The notes under the pieces: model-generated
What the model saw: only the letters and a program-made list of their open reading frames with translations
Told to the model about the DNA's origin: nothing
Databases searched by the model: none
Origin: a virus
Direction: 5' to 3' (one strand)
IMG/VR virus record: IMGVR_UViG_3300030107_001012
Coordinates: 1-24,383 of that record
DNA length: 24,383 nucleotides
Shown: positions 1,954 to 9,272 of the stretch, piece after piece
Numbering within the stretch: the stretch's first letter is position 1
Layout: each line of letters begins with the position of its first letter
Position numbers and translations under genes: made by a program

Positions 1954-2144
1954 AATGGTCTCCCTGTCTCTATTAATTTTTTTAATTTTTTAGTAGAGAT
2001 ATTTAATAATGCCCAAGTAATCAATGTTTCGTGTACATTATATCCATCAAATACTGCATCTTCTTCTCCATTATTTTGTACTTTAGTTAAAGAATCTTTA
2101 ACTAATTTAGAGTGTTTTAAAAATTTAACTTGATCTTTATTCAT
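1950..2144 (-). CDS. Hypothetical 64-aa early protein
   Basis: A basic, helix-prone small protein (MNKDQVKFLKHSKLVKDSL..) with a central acidic loop (NNGEEDAVFDGYN) and a C-terminal KKLKKLIETGRPL. The start is supported by an AGGAG ten bases upstream, and its ATG overlaps the stop of the 38-aa membrane mini-protein (ATGA). No family recognised; the coupling to both neighbours supports a real gene. Confidence 0.6.
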   Translation of the reverse strand: MNKDQVKFLKHSKLVKDSLTKVQNNGEEDAVFDGYNVHETLITWALLNISTKKLKKLIETGRPL

Positions 2145-2257
2145 AACAATATTGCTCCTATTATAAAACCAAGTATGAAGCCAACTATATATTCTCTGTT
2201 ATATAGCGACCACATACTTAGCTTTTCTTTTAGTTTATTAAAATGGAATTTCGTCAT
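2141..2257 (-). CDS. 38-aa single-span membrane mini-protein overlapping the SSB gene
   Basis: This ORF starts inside the last codons of the SSB-like gene, reading the DNA that encodes its acidic DDEIPF tail in another frame, and ends in an ATGA overlap with the 64-aa gene. It fills a 93-base gap that would otherwise be empty. The product has a basic N-terminal part (MTKFHFNKLKEKL) and then an uninterrupted hydrophobic C-terminal span, YIVGFILGFIIGAILL, of about 16-20 residues with GxxxG-like spacing of glycines. An alternative start at the internal ATG (codon 15, MWSLYN) would still keep the span. Predicted: inner-membrane mini-protein with its N-terminus inside. Function unknown. Confidence 0.5.
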   Translation of the reverse strand: MTKFHFNKLKEKLSMWSLYNREYIVGFILGFIIGAILL

Positions 2258-2696
2258 CCATATCATCCATTTTTTCTACAGGTTTTGCATACTCAGGTGT
2301 AGATGGTTGTGCTTCTGTCATTGGCATTTCTCTATATTGTGGAATTGTTTGACCTATTGGTTTCATACCATCTACATTAGGTTGAGGTTTATAAGGTTTA
2401 ATCATAATAAAACTCAAAACCATTTGAAAATCACCTTTATCGTATGGTTTCGGATTTTCTATTTGTTGAGTCTTAGCCATCCATTTACCTGTATAACCTT
2501 GTTTAACTAAGTTTTGAACTCCCTCTGTCATAAACCATTCATTTATTTGTGATAACTTATATTTTTGTTTAGTTAAGCTACAAGTAAATAAACTTTTGGC
2601 ATCAGCTTTATATTCAAACTTAGGAGATTTATTTCCTGTCGGATTTAGATATAAAGTTAAAGCACAAAATGGTTGCTTTTGTTTTTGTTGGTACAT
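2238..2696 (-). CDS. Single-stranded DNA-binding protein-like
   Basis: 152 residues. The C-terminus is a textbook SSB tip: a flexible Pro/Met/Gln-rich linker after about residue 105 and then MDDMDDEIPF, the acidic-hydrophobic end through which SSBs recruit partner proteins. The N-terminal 100 residues contain aromatic residues spread over beta-prone segments (FCALTLYLNPTG, FQMVLSFIMIKP), compatible with an OB fold, although the sequence is divergent. A strong AAAGGAGC site precedes the start, and the start overlaps the exonuclease stop by one base (TAATG). Coupling to an exonuclease fits a role in replication and recombination. Confidence 0.75.
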   Translation of the reverse strand: MYQQKQKQPFCALTLYLNPTGNKSPKFEYKADAKSLFTCSLTKQKYKLSQINEWFMTEGVQNLVKQGYTGKWMAKTQQIENPKPYDKGDFQMVLSFIMIKPYKPQPNVDGMKPIGQTIPQYREMPMTEAQPSTPEYAKPVEKMDDMDDEIPF

Positions 2697-3472
2697 TAGT
2701 TGCTCCTTTGCTTATTATATTCCAAGTTTCTTTGCTTAAAATCTTCTTCAAGACTATTAAGATATTTACAAGCTTTAAAACCTTTTAGGTATTTAGGTTT
2801 AATCTGAAATATCCTCATCTCTACATCTTTAACAGGCTCTTTTGGAATATTTATAACTGCTAAAAATTCGATTTTAAGATTAGTAGAATCTTCCACTAAT
2901 TTTCTATAAGTATGAATTTGAATTGGCATATCAGGATAAAAGTCCTTAGATGTTTTAAAATCTAATATTCCAATCTTACCTTTATACTTAACAAGGCAAT
3001 CAAGAGTTCCACAAACATCTAACTCTTTTGAGTAATATGTTTTTTCTGTCTCAACTACTTTGATTTTTTTGCTATCCCAAAACTTTTTAAACTTTTCAAA
3101 CATAGTTTTAAGTGGCTCTGAGTTTGGAGTAATAACTTCTTTACCTAAAATATAATCCTCAGCTAAAGAGTGAAAATTAGTTCCAATGTGCATAGCACTT
3201 TCTTTTATTGTTTTAACCCTATATTTAAGATCATCTTCAAATTGCTGAATCTCATCCACAGGTTTTTTATTGTGTTTCATTAACTGTTTTATAGCTTCAT
3301 AAACACAATTTTCACTCCACCACATCAAAGCACCTTTACCAAATCTTTCACTTATGATTGTAGTAACACCTTTTTTTTTTAAACCATTTACAGTATATCT
3401 TGCTCCTCTACCTTTAGGATTAAACTCTATTTGGTTTCCGTGTTTATCTTTACTCTTGATTATCATTTCCAT
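2696..3472 (-). CDS. PD-(D/E)XK exonuclease, RecB/Cas4-like
   Basis: 258 residues with the RecB-like nuclease order: IGTNFHSLAEDYI (H101, E105), then GTLDCLVKYKGKIGILDFKTSK with the catalytic D158, D171 and K173 (D-x-K), and a QIHTY motif (Q185, Y189). It probably trims duplex DNA to produce single strands for the neighbouring SSB. Two starts compete: the annotated ATG sits directly against the AGAGAGAGAGG leader, whereas the ATG two codons further (3466) has ideal spacing of about seven bases and is probably used. A run of ten A encodes the LKKK at residues 31-34. The gene overlaps the XRE regulator by 23 bases. Family assignment is firm; substrate polarity is not visible. Confidence 0.88.
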   Translation of the reverse strand: MEMIIKSKDKHGNQIEFNPKGRGARYTVNGLKKKGVTTIISERFGKGALMWWSENCVYEAIKQLMKHNKKPVDEIQQFEDDLKYRVKTIKESAMHIGTNFHSLAEDYILGKEVITPNSEPLKTMFEKFKKFWDSKKIKVVETEKTYYSKELDVCGTLDCLVKYKGKIGILDFKTSKDFYPDMPIQIHTYRKLVEDSTNLKIEFLAVINIPKEPVKDVEMRIFQIKPKYLKGFKACKYLNSLEEDFKQRNLEYNKQRSN

Positions 3473-3812
3473 TCCTCTCTCTCTTTGTTATAAATTTATA
3501 ACCATTCTCAGTAATTGGCTGAACAAAGTAATTTCTATCACACTTTAAATATTCAGCTAACTTCAACTCATTCATAATACTTACAGAATTTACTCCTTTT
3601 TCATACTTCTGAATCTGTTGAAATGTAACAGAAATTGCTTTGGCAACTTTTGTCTGAGTTAAGCCACGCATTAATCTCATCTTCTTTAATTGCAAACCAT
3701 AAATCTTTTTCAAAACTTTATCGTTTTGATGATCTGACACACCAAACATATTTAAGTTAGGTGGAATCAGATGACTTATTTCTGCAATCTTATCTTGGTT
3801 TTTTATTATCAT
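3450..3812 (-). CDS. XRE-family transcriptional regulator
   Basis: 120 residues. A Cro/CI-type HTH occupies about residues 40-97: LQLKKMRLMRGLTQTKVAKA leads into SVTFQQIQKYEKGVNSVS, with the canonical 'R...G.tQ..vA...gvt...iq.yEkG.n' spacing. The C-terminal 20 residues are polar. The extra N-terminal 35 residues are unassigned. It is embedded in the early operon, overlapping the zinc-ribbon gene (23 bases) and the exonuclease gene (23 bases). It may act on the divergent control region near 5700-5900, where an inverted repeat is present. That link is inference. With no integrase or second repressor in view, it should not be read as proof of lysogeny. Confidence 0.85.
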   Translation of the reverse strand: MIIKNQDKIAEISHLIPPNLNMFGVSDHQNDKVLKKIYGLQLKKMRLMRGLTQTKVAKAISVTFQQIQKYEKGVNSVSIMNELKLAEYLKCDRNYFVQPITENGYKFITKRERNGNDNQE

Positions 3813-3999
3813 AAAAAGCCCATTCCTTTCGTTCTCTCTCTGTCAATTTATTAAATTGACCTTGCCAACAAGTCCGACAGAGTAATGACTCGTTGAAAAG
3901 GGTACTGCCTACAAACCAAGCTAATTTATCTGTTTCTGTAATAAAACATCTAGCACATTTGTAAGTTAATTTTTTTGTTTGTATTGTTAGTTTAGGCAT
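3790..3999 (-). CDS. Zinc-ribbon mini-protein
   Basis: 69 residues with two CxxC pairs, CARC (C15, C18) and CRTC (C41, C44), separated by 22 residues: a four-cysteine zinc ribbon. The remainder is basic and ends with KLTERERKEWAFYDNKKPR, a helical basic tail suited to binding nucleic acid or polymerase. The fold is inferred from the cysteine spacing. Neighbours are a lipoprotein gene upstream and the XRE regulator downstream. Possible roles include transcription factor or host RNA-polymerase modulator; no specific family recognised. Confidence 0.7.
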   Translation of the reverse strand: MPKLTIQTKKLTYKCARCFITETDKLAWFVGSTLFNESLLCRTCWQGQFNKLTERERKEWAFYDNKKPR

Positions 4000-4000
4000 A

Positions 4001-4276
4001 TTAATTTAATATCGAGTGTCCACGATTCACTAGACATTTACGATATATTGATTGATGTTCAGTTTCAGCTTCAGGGCTTCCTATCCAATAAATAATATTA
4101 CCAATGAAGTCGGTATTATTATCTGCAATAGTTTTACAATGTTGTAAATCGTTTGTAATTTCTTTTGCTTGGTCTGTATTGAAAGTTCCTGATTTTCCAG
4201 CAGTATCAATTATTGGATTGTAGGCACACCCATTTAAAAAGCAGACAAGGGTTGCGATTAAAAGTAAGTTTTTCAT
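4001..4276 (-). CDS. Phage-encoded small lipoprotein
   Basis: 91 residues. The N-terminus MKNLLLIATLVCFLNGCAYN is a signal peptide with lipobox L-N-G-C; C17 would be lipidated and become residue 1 of the mature protein. The mature part of about 75 residues contains further cysteines in LQHCKTIAD and YRKCLVNRGHSIL, which may form a disulfide in the periplasm. The C-terminal 'YRkCL..RGh.vL' resembles the end of alphaproteobacterial glycine-zipper-type lipoproteins, suggesting capture from a host gene. The ribosome site is AGAGAGAGGA. Its place in the early operon suggests superinfection exclusion or envelope modification rather than lysis; this is inference. Confidence 0.8.
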   Translation of the reverse strand: MKNLLLIATLVCFLNGCAYNPIIDTAGKSGTFNTDQAKEITNDLQHCKTIADNNTDFIGNIIYWIGSPEAETEHQSIYRKCLVNRGHSILN

Positions 4277-4278
4277 AA

Positions 4279-4587
4279 CTATTTATCCTCTCTCTTTATA
4301 CTGTTGCTGGATGATATTTTATTTGGTGCATCTTCCAAGCAACTTGTTTCTTTTGAAACCTCAGTTTCTTTAGCTTTTCCAACAAGTCTTGTTCTCTCAC
4401 TATCTGCTTGTCGTACTTCGCTTGAAGTTTCACTATTTGCTTTTGCATCTAGTTTCTCCTTTACAAAGTTTTCCACCTCTGCCACAGGTGTTTTGGGATG
4501 AAATATAACCCCAAAATCTTTATACACTTCTTCTAGCAAATTAAATGACTTATTTCTAGTGTTAATTGATAATATTAATTTAGGCAT
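4279..4587 (-). CDS. Hypothetical 102-aa early protein with disordered C-terminus
   Basis: A short folded-looking N-terminus (MPKLILSINTRNKSFNLLEE, then DFGVIFHPKTPVAEVENFV) is followed from about residue 50 by a Ser/Glu/Lys-rich, low-complexity tail that is probably disordered. The start is supported by AAGGAGAG and overlaps the end of the cysteine-peptidase-like gene by eight bases. Its opening MPKL is shared with the zinc-ribbon protein downstream, which may be chance. No family recognised. Confidence 0.6.
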   Translation of the reverse strand: MPKLILSINTRNKSFNLLEEVYKDFGVIFHPKTPVAEVENFVKEKLDAKANSETSSEVRQADSERTRLVGKAKETEVSKETSCLEDAPNKISSSNSIKREDK

Positions 4588-4984: not shown

Positions 4985-5003
4985 TATGCTCTCTCCTTTT
5001 TTC

Positions 5004-5360
5004 CTAATTACCAGATTCATTTATTTGTCGTGCAAGCTGAACAACATTTGGTATAAAATTTGGAAAATAATATTTTTTTTCATCTAAAGTATCAAATGAT
5101 AAAAGATTATTTATATTCAAAGAATAATTACCTATGTAATTAAAAACTTTATTACCAGATTCATTTTTTTTAACACCTTTATAAATATCTGCATAAATAG
5201 TGTAATGATACCCAGCAGTTCCATCTATTCCTAAATCTCCATCTATATCTTTACTTTTATCTAAATAAAGATTTGTAATTTTTGTAGCCTTAAATTGTTT
5301 TTTAAGTGCTTGAACTACAATATCTTTTAATGAGTCTTTACTTGTTATTGGTTTTTTCAT
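5004..5360 (-). CDS. Hypothetical 118-aa early protein
   Basis: The protein starts with a basic segment (MKKPITSKDSLKDIVVQALK), continues with an Asp/Gly-rich region (DKSKDIDGDLGIDGTAGYHY), and has a beta-prone middle and a polar end NESGN. The ATG is preceded by AAAGGAGAGAACATA, and the stop lies 19 bases before the start of the cysteine-peptidase-like gene. The Asp-rich DIDGDLGIDG stretch might coordinate a cation but lacks a clear EF-hand pattern. No family recognised. Its position near the head of the early operon suggests early expression. Confidence 0.6.
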   Translation of the reverse strand: MKKPITSKDSLKDIVVQALKKQFKATKITNLYLDKSKDIDGDLGIDGTAGYHYTIYADIYKGVKKNESGNKVFNYIGNYSLNINNLLSFDTLDEKKYYFPNFIPNVVQLARQINESGN

Positions 5361-5641
5361 TATGTTCTCTCCTTTAATAATTTAATTGAGAACTCTCCAC
5401 CAAAATAAAATAATGTATCTTTATGATTTGGGTTAGAACTAGGATTCCAATTAATTTTTGTATCAAACCAATTTTTAGCTTCAGTTTCCCAGTATAGTTT
5501 ATTGTATGGTTTCCAAGCTGAAAATTCTCTCATAAAATAATTTGTAAGTTCAGTTGGATTTTTAAATGATAAAGTTTCTTCTTTACCATTCAAATAAGAA
5601 GTTCTGTAATCTTTACTTCTTTTTATTTGTAGTGTTATCAT
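5360..5641 (-). CDS. Hypothetical 93-aa protein, first gene of the early operon
   Basis: Start placed at the ATG at 5641 because AAAAGGAGAGAAG lies immediately upstream. An in-frame ATG at 5677 would add a 12-residue leader (MKKTNNLKKGEK) and also has an AGGA upstream, so both starts remain possible. The product is rich in Trp and Tyr (SAWKPYNKLYWETEAKNWF, residues about 40-58), basic at the N-terminus, and contains TLFYFGGEFSIKLL near the end. It resembles a compact alpha/beta protein but matches no known family. Being first in the leftward early operon, it is a candidate host-takeover protein. Confidence 0.6.
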   Translation of the reverse strand: MITLQIKRSKDYRTSYLNGKEETLSFKNPTELTNYFMREFSAWKPYNKLYWETEAKNWFDTKINWNPSSNPNHKDTLFYFGGEFSIKLLKERT

Positions 5642-5702
5642 CTTCTCTCCTTTTTTTAGGTTATTTGTTTTTTTCATAATGTCCTATTTTAATCATATTT
5701 AA

Positions 5703-5717
5703 GGTTGAATTACAACC
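5703..5717. promoter_or_regulatory. Inverted repeat, candidate operator upstream of early operon
   Basis: GGTTG and CAACC flank a five-base AATTA centre. The element lies 26-40 bases upstream of the first possible early start (5677). On the minus strand it also contains TTGTAA followed 18 bases later by TAAAAT, a poor promoter match. It could be bound by the XRE regulator encoded at 3450-3812 or form a small leader hairpin. Only one copy was found. Confidence 0.3.
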
Positions 5718-5822
5718 CCTAAAATAATGGCTTAAAACCTAGCTTATTTAACATTAGATACAAGTTATAGTAGAATATTTTAACATTTTGAGATTATAAG
5801 CAAATCAGATACAAATGATTCG

Positions 5823-5848
5823 TTATGATATTTATAAATTTTATGATA
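5823..5848. repeat. Short direct repeat TTATGATA x2
   Basis: Two identical 8-mers (5823-5830 and 5841-5848) separated by the AT-only spacer TTTATAAATT. The 18-base period is near two helical turns, as expected for a dimeric binding site or iteron. In such AT-rich DNA, chance is a real alternative. Confidence 0.3.
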
Positions 5849-5911
5849 GAGAGAATTTAATGCGTAAGCAGTCAAAGTATATTTTTTTCATAACAAATAC
5901 TTTTAGGTTAT

Positions 5912-5948
5912 GTGTTGGGCAGTTCTCTCTCTCTCTACTGCTCAACAC
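5912..5948 (+). promoter_or_regulatory. 12-bp stem-loop with (TC)6T loop in leader of plus-strand islet
   Basis: Arms GTGTTGGGCAGT (5912-5923) and ACTGCTCAACAC (5937-5948) pair over 12 positions with a single G-U wobble. The 13-base loop (5924-5936) is a pure TC alternation. It is followed by an A-rich stretch and the ATG at 5967, with no T-run, so it does not look like a terminator in either direction. It would form in the 5' leader of the islet transcript. The CU loop is complementary to the GAGAGAG-rich ribosome sites of the early genes. Confidence 0.6.
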
Positions 5949-5966
5949 TTTAAAAAAGTTAAAACT

Positions 5967-6227
5967 ATGGATGAAATACAATCATTAAAAAATATTATAG
6001 ATTCTAAAGAAGCTGAAATAACTGCTTTAAGAAGTATTAATAACCAACACAGAATATTAAATGGAGAATTAAGAAAAGAAATAGATCAGTTAAAATTATC
6101 AAATATAAAAGATGTTGAAGATGCTAAAAAAGAAGCCGATAAGCTTATGATGGAAAAAATCAAAGAGTATGAAAAAAAAATAAGACGATTAAAAAATGAT
6201 GTAAAGGAGATGTTACAATATCCGTGA
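5967..6227 (+). CDS. Coiled-coil protein, first gene of plus-strand islet
   Basis: Start set at the ATG of MDEIQSLKN (87 codons including the stop). The in-frame ATG at 5910 would put the stem-loop inside the coding region and has only AGG two bases upstream, so it is less likely; neither start has a good ribosome site. From the first residues to the end the protein is a continuous charged helix with heptad-like leucines and isoleucines (EIQSLKNIIDSKEAEITALR, later EYEKKIRRLKNDVKEML). It is predicted to be a coiled coil and probably oligomeric. The stop overlaps the GTG of the lipoprotein gene. It could be a spanin partner or a regulator; function unknown. Confidence 0.6.
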   Translation: MDEIQSLKNIIDSKEAEITALRSINNQHRILNGELRKEIDQLKLSNIKDVEDAKKEADKLMMEKIKEYEKKIRRLKNDVKEMLQYP

Positions 6228-6403
6228 TTATATTTAACTATCCAATACACAGAAAATATATAAATATAATTTATAAAATTTTAATTGTTATTATTTCTGT
6301 AATTGTATTTGTATTGTTAGTATCTTGTAGTAAAATTGATTTTGACCCAACAACAACATCTTTTAAATATTTAATACAAAAGGAGAGCAAATGGAAACAA
6401 TGA
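6224..6403 (+). CDS. Small lipoprotein with GTG start
   Basis: A 59-codon ORF beginning with GTG that overlaps the preceding stop as GTGA and ends 13 bases inside the next gene, filling an otherwise empty 160-base gap. The N-terminus has a basic region (MIIFNYPIHRKYINIIYK), then the hydrophobic core ILIVIISVIVFVLLV and the lipobox L-V-S-C with C35 as lipidation site. The mature peptide is only about 25 residues (CSKIDFDPTTTSFKYLIQKE..). The closest SD-like sequence is far upstream, so translation is probably coupled to the coiled-coil gene. Candidate o-spanin or exclusion lipoprotein; inference. Confidence 0.6.
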   Translation: MIIFNYPIHRKYINIIYKILIVIISVIVFVLLVSCSKIDFDPTTTSFKYLIQKESKWKQ

Positions 6404-6735
6404 ACTTAAATAGCAGAGAAGCTTATAAAAGGATGACAGAAGCATCTAACAAATGGAGTGAGTGGGCTGAAAAATCTATTGTACTTGATGAAGCTAGAAA
6501 AGCTATGTTCAGTAAATTATTCTTAAAATATAAATTAGAAACTAAAACTGTTATTGAAGCTGACCATAAAGCTAGAATAGACCCTGAGTATAAAAAAATT
6601 ATTGATAGTTATGCTTATGCAGAGGGTCAATTAATAAAAGCAAAATTAATGTATAATAATCTTGATCGTTATTTATCTGTTAGACAAACAGAAGTAAAAA
6701 GAGATTTAACTCTTGCTGTAAAACAAGAGGGATAA
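6391..6735 (+). CDS. Helical phage protein, last gene of plus-strand islet
   Basis: 114 residues, nearly all helical and charged. It has a strong AAAGGAGAG site six bases or less before the ATG; a second ATG three codons on is possible. The middle part, DPEYKKIIDSYAYAEGQLIK, and the C-terminal RYLSVRQTEVKRDL follow the pattern 'i.....Y..Ae..l...k..y..l.......R..q', seen in small phage proteins often found beside recombination or SSB genes. No enzymatic motif is visible. The gene ends just before paired hairpins and converges with the 78-aa gene on the other strand. Confidence 0.7.
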   Translation: METMNLNSREAYKRMTEASNKWSEWAEKSIVLDEARKAMFSKLFLKYKLETKTVIEADHKARIDPEYKKIIDSYAYAEGQLIKAKLMYNNLDRYLSVRQTEVKRDLTLAVKQEG

Positions 6736-6738
6736 AAT

Positions 6739-6795
6739 TCTTTGGGAATCTTAAGCTCCCTCAAAGATAGACCCATAACCGAGAGGGTATGGGTC
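6739..6795. terminator. Tandem hairpins between convergent genes, probable bidirectional terminator
   Basis: Hairpin A, 6739-6767, pairs TCTTTGGGA with TCCC-TC-AAAGA and has a CTTAAG-containing loop. Hairpin B, 6770-6795, pairs GACCCATA with TATGGGTC and has an inner CC/GG closing a GAGA tetraloop. Leftward transcription through A runs into ATTTTATC; rightward transcription through B meets only a short CTTTAA. The T-tracts are modest, but the location in a 64-base gap between converging operons makes termination of both the likely role. Confidence 0.6.
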
Positions 6796-6799
6796 GCCT

Positions 6800-7036
6800 T
6801 TAATGTTTAGTAATATCTAAATCTTTTAAGTCTGTTGCTTCTGTAATCTTTTCTATTTTAAATTCGTAATTAATAAGTTTTACATCAGGATATTGGCTCA
6901 TATCCTTTACAAGATTTTTGAGTTTAGAATGATTTGGGCTTTGATCTACAAACCTTAAACAAACAAAATGTCCATAAGGATTGTAGTCAGATTCTAATTG
7001 AAATTCTACTTCTATAATTACTGCATCTATGTCCAT
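6800..7036 (-). CDS. Hypothetical 78-aa protein, end of late operon
   Basis: Starts MDIDAVIIEVEFQLESDYNP and shows alternating hydrophobic residues typical of strands, then a helical SKLKNLVKDMSQYP and a final strand INYEFKIEKI. The pattern suggests a small alpha/beta protein of ferredoxin-like size. No clear ribosome site lies before this ATG, which is ten bases past the holin stop, so translation may be coupled. It is the last gene before the terminator. No family recognised. Confidence 0.55.
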   Translation of the reverse strand: MDIDAVIIEVEFQLESDYNPYGHFVCLRFVDQSPNHSKLKNLVKDMSQYPDVKLINYEFKIEKITEATDLKDLDITKH

Positions 7037-7045
7037 CAGGACATA

Positions 7046-7411
7046 TTACTTCTTTTTGTTTCGGTTTAAAACCTTATCTGTCATCTTAGTAGAAAATGTT
7101 GCTGTGAAGACGATGATTACGAGATACCAAACACTATCAGGTAAATCGTTGATTATCCTTACCCATTCTTCAAAGTTTGCTCTAGTGCTTTCAAACCAGC
7201 CTGTACTTAACATTGATATAAGCCAAATCATTAATATTTCGTCTTTCCAACTTTTATCTTGGCTCTTAATTCTAGTTATATCTACATCTTTTGCGGCTTC
7301 TATTTCTGCGGCTCTTATAGTTTTAACCTTTTCAGCTTTATGTTTAAAATGTTCAGTAGCTTTGTTTAAAACAATTTTTGTTAAAGGATTTTTTAATAAA
7401 CCAAATATCAT
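7046..7411 (-). CDS. Holin, 3TM/GTA-type-like
   Basis: 121 residues. An N-terminal amphipathic, charged region (residues 1-53) leads to SWKDEILMIWLISMLSTGWF (first span about 57-73), a polar stretch with FEEWVRIINDLPDSVW, a second hydrophobic span WYLVIIVFTATFST (about 95-108) and a basic C-terminus NRNKKK. The 'sWkDE....w..........f......l.P.wy..iv....fg.k' pattern matches the phage holin 3TM family found in gene transfer agents and alphaproteobacterial phages. The protein would form inner-membrane holes to release the endolysin. The first of the three spans may be the weakly hydrophobic start of the protein. Lysis genes nearby support the call. Confidence 0.72.
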   Translation of the reverse strand: MIFGLLKNPLTKIVLNKATEHFKHKAEKVKTIRAAEIEAAKDVDITRIKSQDKSWKDEILMIWLISMLSTGWFESTRANFEEWVRIINDLPDSVWYLVIIVFTATFSTKMTDKVLNRNKKK

Positions 7412-8792: not shown

Positions 8793-9272
8793 TTAATTTA
8801 CCACCTTTCCACCAGACCATTTCATATCTGGTAATCCATTTTCATAAGTCTTTCCATCATAACGAAGAACTTGTTTTCTATTTGATCCCTCTACATAAGA
8901 ACAATGAATCCAACCACTATTAGCTTCTCCTGTCCAATATTCAAGAATTAATTGGTCAAAATCACAATTAGCTTCTATCCATACTGCTACTTGAAGATTA
9001 GATACTCCAGCTATTTCAAAATCAACTGCTTGTCCTTTTGCGTGTTGACTTGTTTTTTTTGATCCAATCGCTTCGCATAATTCTTCTGAACGAAAGCCTG
9101 AAGTAATAATAATAGGTTTATCAAACTTTGCTCTTACAGGTTCTAATACTGTATAACATAAATCGGTTAAGTTTTTAATTTCTCCACTTCCAGCTTTATT
9201 CTCAATTCCTTTACGAACTGCTGTCATAGACTTTTCAAATTCTTCTAACTTAAAATGTTTTGATAATTGCAT
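8793..9272 (-). CDS. M15-family zinc peptidase, probable endolysin
   Basis: 159 residues. The zinc site is visible: SQHAKGQAVDFE (H77, D84) and GWIHCSY (H123), the 'S.H..G.AvD ... gWiH' signature of M15A/DUF882-like L,D-carboxypeptidases and L-Ala-D-Glu peptidases. The N-terminal LSKHFKLEEFEKS and the SGFRSEELCEAIG segment are typical of this group. There is no signal peptide, so export through a holin is expected; the holin-like gene lies 1.4 kb downstream in the same operon. It could instead be a virion-bound wall peptidase, since it directly follows fibre genes. Endolysin is the preferred inference. Confidence 0.85.
   Translation of the reverse strand: MQLSKHFKLEEFEKSMTAVRKGIENKAGSGEIKNLTDLCYTVLEPVRAKFDKPIIITSGFRSEELCEAIGSKKTSQHAKGQAVDFEIAGVSNLQVAVWIEANCDFDQLILEYWTGEANSGWIHCSYVEGSNRKQVLRYDGKTYENGLPDMKWSGGKVVN

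What the first reader, a model, noticed from the sequence alone, without database searches (positions are those of the whole stretch)
5967..6735. Plus-strand three-gene islet, including a hidden GTG-start lipoprotein
The only rightward genes in the window sit between the divergent control region and a convergent terminator pair. The middle gene (6224-6403) has a lipobox LVSC, a GTGA overlap with its neighbour and only about 25 mature residues. Coiled-coil, lipoprotein and helical proteins made together resemble a compact envelope or exclusion module, separate from early and late operons. I cannot match this trio to a described system.
Basis: partly seen in the sequence, partly recalled or inferred. 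Interest (0 to 1): 0.6.

Follow-up and report, generated by a model that had tools for sequence, protein, structure and literature searches.

The report
Short early-gene arm of SAR11 phage
The three small rightward genes are real and conserved in a common group of viruses of SAR11 ocean bacteria; they are the short end of the virus's early gene set, and they sit behind a previously unlisted folded RNA leader and beside a block of recombination genes that can lie on either strand.

Summary
ORF1 (5967-6227), ORF2 (6224-6403, GTG start, lipobox LVSC, Cys35, 25 mature residues) and ORF3 (6391-6735) are real coding genes. Their order is conserved across HTVC111P-type pelagiphages, and isolate HTVC026P carries them annotated as gp03-gp02-gp01. 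The exclusion-module reading is weaker. In about half of relatives the trio is the far end of a longer operon (HTH, exonuclease, protein with an SSB-like acidic tip). In the window's lineage that block and the control region are inverted, so the trio stands alone. On the ORF3 tree the orientation changes about 8 times (at least 5 forced by starred branches). ORF3 is predicted all-helical; its best PDB fold matches are T4 UvsY chains, but below significance and with no sequence support. ORF2 is a lipoprotein in 66 of 82 distinct proteins, a membrane-only peptide in 16, and missing in two loci; its most conserved part is the N-terminus. The strongest new result lies just upstream: 5821-5949 is a structured leader RNA, absent from Rfam, with all 21 modelled pairs showing compensatory changes. 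It occurs once per genome and precedes the trio in one orientation and the wHTH-HNH-DnaD arm in the other. I read the islet as a minimal early arm, probably a recombination accessory, with a small membrane protein of unknown role.

The parts
5748..5776 (+). Promoter-like site for the islet transcript (TTAACA-17-TAGAAT)
   Evidence: consensus scan, 10 of 12 matches; weak evidence, promoter-like sites are common in this AT-rich stretch
5821..5949 (+). Structured leader RNA of the islet
   Evidence: CM from A-type copies finds most B-type copies on the other arm at E about 1e-5 to 4e-11, one per genome; 21/21 pairs with compensatory change, 99% of cells paired, covariation 0.695 vs 0.158 shuffled; no Rfam match
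5848..5854 (+). AGAGAGA segment, complementary to the hairpin loop (possible pseudoknot)
   Evidence: conserved in nearly all copies; pairing itself untestable because both sides hardly vary
5861..5870 (+). P2: small hairpin with GNRA-type loop (TGC-GTAA-GCA)
   Evidence: stem replaced with pairing kept and loop kept in 54 of 60 copies
5912..5948 (+). P4: 12-bp hairpin with CUCUCUCU loop, directly before ORF1
   Evidence: only stem of at least 11 bp with 5 or more G+C in the arm in the 24-kb window; compensatory changes at all 12 pairs
5967..6227 (+). ORF1, 86 aa, charged, predicted soluble, conserved C-terminal MLxYP end
   Evidence: conserved in order and 4-nt overlap with ORF2; no hydrophobic segment
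6224..6403 (+). ORF2, 59 aa, GTG start; conserved N-terminus MIIF-PIHRKY, membrane segment, lipobox, short tail with FDPTT
6317..6328 (+). Lipobox LVSC of ORF2 (Cys35)
   Evidence: canonical lipobox in 66 of 82 distinct ORF2 proteins, all 66 with FDP/FNP in the tail
6391..6735 (+). ORF3, 114 aa, three-helix protein with UvsY-like predicted fold
   Evidence: AF2 pLDDT 88; best PDB fold matches T4 UvsY, E 0.16, not significant; no sequence match to UvsY
6739..6767 (.). Hairpin 1 between convergent genes
6770..6795 (.). Hairpin 2 between convergent genes; loop GAGAG on +, CUCUC on -
2141..4587 (-). Early block (TM peptide 2141-2266, SSB-like 2238-2696, exonuclease 2696-3472, HTH 3450-3812, 3790-3999, lipoprotein 4001-4276, 4279-4587) that in B-type relatives lies in front of the trio on the same strand
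   Evidence: gene-order survey; exonuclease PHROG 298; HTH families

Best explanation
The islet is the short arm of the divergent early control region of an HTVC111P-type pelagiphage. Shown: three overlapping, conserved genes follow one structured leader; the arm's length differs between relatives because the block HTH-exonuclease-SSB-like plus the control region is found in either orientation. With the block on this strand the trio is the end of an early recombination operon; with it inverted, as here, the trio is left alone behind the leader. Inferred: the trio is transcribed early; the leader controls expression by base pairing of its CUCUCU loop with GAGAGA, either in cis or with early-gene Shine-Dalgarno sites; ORF3 is a recombination accessory acting like the T4 mediator UvsY, helping the host recombinase onto ssDNA made by the exonuclease; ORF1 and ORF2, made in coupled fashion, form a small membrane-linked pair whose conserved part faces the cytoplasm, with a lipidated periplasmic tail as an optional addition.
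For: Gene order and two orientations; at least 5 and parsimoniously 8 changes of orientation on the ORF3 tree; leader covariation and position at the leader side of the control region in both orientations; ORF3 fold; SSB-like acidic tips such as DMDDEIPF or DDDLPF in nearly all of 95 distinct partner proteins; exonuclease PHROG; ORF2 conservation strongest in its N-terminus and TM-only forms.
Against: UvsY resemblance is not significant by E-value and has no sequence support. The SSB-like protein has no profile, sequence or confident fold match to an SSB. No recombinase gene was recognised in the window. The ORF1-ORF2 role rests on layout alone. Timing of expression is not measured.
Confidence: 0.5

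Rival explanations
1. ORF2 is an early superinfection-exclusion lipoprotein like T5 Llp or Cor: secreted, lipidated at Cys35, and blocking the phage receptor from the periplasmic side, with ORF1 and ORF3 as unrelated passengers.
For: Canonical lipobox and conserved FDPTT tail in 66 of 82 distinct proteins; mostly Ser after the Cys, compatible with outer-membrane sorting by the E. coli rule.
Against: Mature part is only 21-31 residues with a conserved cytoplasmic N-terminus instead of a variable signal peptide; tail missing in 16 distinct proteins and replaced by a 36-aa TM peptide in isolates 111P and 202P. Llp is larger (61 residues in the structure), lies beside the receptor-binding gene and has an intramolecular disulphide (PMC9586334); ORF2 does not. 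Relatives of ORF3 were not found in sequenced prokaryote genomes.
Confidence: 0.2
2. ORF2 is a lysis-type protein (o-spanin or bacteriocin-release-like lipoprotein), with ORF1 as its partner.
For: Small size, lipobox, overlap with an upstream charged helical protein.
Against: ORF1 has no membrane segment or signal, so it cannot be an inner-membrane spanin; the lysis genes (M15 endolysin 8793-9272 and a TM protein 7046-7411) lie on the other strand; TM-only variants lack any periplasmic tail.
Confidence: 0.07
3. The conserved dyads and hairpins upstream are DNA elements (operators of the HTH protein or a replication origin with ssDNA hairpins), not RNA.
For: They sit in the divergent control region; GTTATGA/TCATAAC dyads could be operator half-sites; very stable small hairpins with GNA-type loops also form in DNA (established knowledge, not tested).
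Against: Compensatory change at every modelled pair with conserved loops, including GNRA-type loops, and a fixed place directly before a start codon fit an mRNA leader better.
Confidence: 0.25
4. The three ORFs are selfish or neutral early filler (morons) with unrelated functions.
For: No functional family found for any of them.
Against: Order kept in nearly all relatives over large divergence, purifying selection on ORF2, ORF3 invariant at 31 columns over 37 diverse sequences.
Confidence: 0.1

Closest known systems
Pelagibacter phage HTVC026P gp03-gp02-gp01 (MN698240)
   Same: Same three genes, same order, same overlaps, same solitary position; ORF3 71% and ORF2 69% identical; control region 86% identical DNA
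   Different: ATG start for gp02; annotated only as hypothetical proteins
Pelagibacter phages HTVC111P and HTVC202P early arm
   Same: ORF1-like, small TM peptide, ORF3 in the same order at the end of the arm, same leader RNA on the other arm
   Different: Block with HTH, exonuclease and SSB-like genes precedes the trio on the same strand; the ORF2 position holds a 36-aa peptide without lipobox
T4 UvsY recombination mediator
   Same: Small, all-helical, best PDB fold match; partner genes of ssDNA metabolism
   Different: No sequence similarity, Foldseek E 0.16, KARL motif not placed, no phage recombinase seen
T5 Llp / Cor exclusion lipoproteins
   Same: Small phage lipoprotein with a lipobox
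   Different: Mature part 25 aa instead of about 61, no second Cys, different gene neighbours, lipobox dispensable
Rz/Rz1 spanins
   Same: Overlapping small genes, one a lipoprotein
   Different: Partner lacks a TM segment; not with lysis genes

Membership tests
HTVC111P-type pelagiphages | Capsid and overall gene order shared with isolates | tested here: met
   Capsid 74-77% identical to HTVC111P, 202P, 026P, 112P; gene order
Llp/Cor superinfection-exclusion lipoproteins | Lipobox with lipidated N-terminal Cys | tested here: inconclusive
   Lipobox present by sequence; lipidation itself not testable here
Llp/Cor superinfection-exclusion lipoproteins | Mature domain of about 60 residues with an intramolecular disulphide | tested here: not met
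   25 residues, single Cys
Llp/Cor superinfection-exclusion lipoproteins | Receptor blocking | not testable with these tools
   needs experiment
UvsY recombination mediators (PF11056) | Sequence profile match | tested here: not met
   No Pfam hit; hhalign probability 2%
UvsY recombination mediators (PF11056) | UvsY fold | tested here: inconclusive
   Top PDB matches are UvsY, TM about 0.55, prob 0.99 but E 0.16
UvsY recombination mediators (PF11056) | ssDNA binding, hexamer, recombinase loading | not testable with these tools
   needs experiment
Two-component spanins (Rz/Rz1) | Inner-membrane partner with N-terminal TM segment | tested here: not met
   ORF1 maximal 19-residue hydropathy -0.01
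Known Rfam RNA families | Covariance-model match | tested here: not met
   No match up to E 1 in 5000-7000
Known anti-phage defence proteins | PADLOC profile match | tested here: not met
   Only weak coiled-coil hits for ORF1, best E 0.006

The most novel reading that the evidence does not exclude
A new phage riboregulator: a leader RNA of about 130 nt, one per genome, whose CUCUCU hairpin loop pairs with GAGAGA in its own 5' part or in Shine-Dalgarno sites of early genes, attached to a control region that is found in either orientation together with the recombination block, so that it governs either this three-gene arm or the replication-initiation arm.
Probability: 0.4. Interest if true: 0.75.

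Novelty: new variant of a known kind. Interest (0 to 1): 0.5.

Why it matters
Pelagiphages are among the most abundant viruses in the ocean and almost none of their early control is understood. The trio and its leader give a small, testable early unit. The leader is a strongly supported, undescribed structured RNA, and the repeated change of orientation of the control region and recombination block is an unusual mode of early-region evolution. If ORF3 is a recombination mediator, it would explain how these small phages use host recombinase.

Tried and rejected
Family searches of the trio in PHROGs, Pfam, NCBIfam, PADLOC and PDB sequences gave nothing above threshold. UvsY homology by profile comparison failed. 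HTVC112P gp01, in the ORF3 position, shows no BLAST similarity to ORF3, so its homology is left open. The SSB-like protein's model matched no SSB. Searched for inverted repeats at the block's ends that could drive inversion: none of note in the window, so no site-specific switch is claimed. Considered ATG 5910 as the ORF1 start: rejected because it lies at the hairpin, whose stem varies as RNA. Spanin and bacteriocin-release readings rejected on topology. The first profile search with ORF2 had no conserved stretch; repeated with the closer set. One genome-contig scan found no ORF3 relatives; this scan only reaches relatives sharing the short patterns.

Full report
Origin. The window is a 24,383-base virus record. 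Its capsid is 74-77% identical to those of Pelagibacter phages HTVC111P, 202P, 026P and 112P, taxonomically unclassified pelagiphages called the HTVC111P type (PMC10504331). HTVC026P carries the same trio, annotated as hypothetical proteins gp03, gp02 and gp01, in the same solitary position.

The genes are real. ORF1, ORF2 and ORF3 are conserved in order across dozens of contigs (the lists hold near-copies). The 4-nt ATGA/GTGA overlap of ORF1 and ORF2 is nearly universal. ORF2 shows purifying selection in its own frame and not in shifted ones. Of 82 distinct ORF2 proteins, 66 have a canonical lipobox and all 66 carry FDP or FNP in the short tail; 16 stop after the membrane segment. Two loci lack ORF2 (L077, L078). 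HTVC112P carries an unannotated GTG-start TM-only version (MIIFGKPIHRKYHK...) elsewhere in its arm. The best conserved part of ORF2 is the N-terminus that a lipoprotein would lose with its signal peptide, so that part probably has a role of its own (inference).

The setting. A survey of gene order shows two layouts. In layout A (window, HTVC026P) the block with TM peptide, SSB-like protein, exonuclease, HTH regulator, a zinc-finger-like gene, a lipoprotein and gene 4279 is on the left strand, and the trio stands alone on the right. In layout B (HTVC111P, HTVC202P and many contigs) the same block is on the right strand directly before the trio. The control region is inverted with it. On a tree of ORF3 the layout changes 8 times at the least, of which 5 are forced by well supported branches. 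This may reflect repeated inversion or recombination between lineages; no inverted repeats that would drive it were found. So the islet is a shortened early arm, not a separate module.

ORF3. AlphaFold2 gives a confident three-helix model (pLDDT 88). The first four PDB matches, and many of the first fifty, are T4 UvsY chains, but the best E-value is 0.16. Profile comparison with eleven UvsY sequences finds nothing. The operon partners in layout B support a role in ssDNA recombination: an exonuclease and a protein whose C-terminus is the SSB-type tip DMDDEIPF, DDDLPF or similar in nearly all of 95 distinct versions, although its own fold model matched no SSB. I treat the mediator reading as likely in kind but unproven.

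The leader. Immediately before ORF1 lies a 12-bp hairpin with a CUCUCUCU loop (5912-5948), the only stem of its strength in the window. With about 90 bases before it, it forms a conserved element: GTTATGA...TCATAAC, an AGAGAGA segment, a small GNRA-loop hairpin, and the CUCUCU hairpin. A covariance model built only from A-type copies finds B-type copies, mostly at E 1e-5 to 4e-11, before the wHTH gene on the opposite arm. All 21 modelled pairs show compensatory change, 99% of cells pair, and slid controls fall far below. That alignment was fitted to the structure, but an unfitted alignment of A-type copies already shows compensatory changes in the hairpin, and the stems can be read off unaligned sequences. 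Rfam has no match, and two exact pattern scans hit once per contig; most of those contigs were already in the set, and I did not check the layout of the few others. Early genes of the window use GAGAG Shine-Dalgarno sites more often than late ones (6 of 19 against 1 of 22, p 0.04), so the loop could act on them; this is a hypothesis. Many B-type genomes have a second CUCUCU-loop hairpin after ORF3.

Exclusion. Exclusion by a small lipoprotein is established for T5 Llp (PMC9586334). ORF2 differs in size, cysteine content, neighbours and the dispensability of its lipobox. It is not excluded by the data and stays as the main rival.

Verdict. The trio is a new variant of a known kind, a short divergent early arm; the leader RNA is the most novel part.

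Noticed in passing
window 5821-5949 and loci: Structured leader RNA with GNRA hairpin and CUCUCU-loop hairpin, not in Rfam
   Followed up: yes
window 2141-4587 against B-type loci such as L045, L024, L083: Early recombination block and control region occur in two orientations among relatives, with repeated changes on the ORF3 tree
   Followed up: partly
B-type loci, about 410-555 bases after the ORF3 start (for example L223:6477): A second hairpin with CUCUCU loop between ORF3 and the convergent gene
   Followed up: no
L084:2453-2563 (HTVC112P, minus strand): Unannotated GTG-start 36-aa gene of the ORF2 family without lipobox
   Followed up: partly
window 4001-4276 (-): Another predicted phage lipoprotein (LNGC) in the left early operon, also present in HTVC112P (gp05)
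   Followed up: no
window 2238-2696 (-): Protein with SSB-type acidic C-terminal tip DDEIPF but no recognisable SSB domain
   Followed up: partly
HTVC026P gp47, HTVC111P gp50, HTVC112P gp46: Tail-region genes annotated as toxin-activating lysine acyltransferase or RTX acyltransferase family
   Followed up: no
window 5945-5967: ORF1 lacks a visible Shine-Dalgarno site in the window although several relatives have AGGAG
   Followed up: no
ORF1 C-terminus, window 6213-6224: ORF1 proteins end in a conserved MLxYP-like tail even where ORF2 is absent
   Followed up: no
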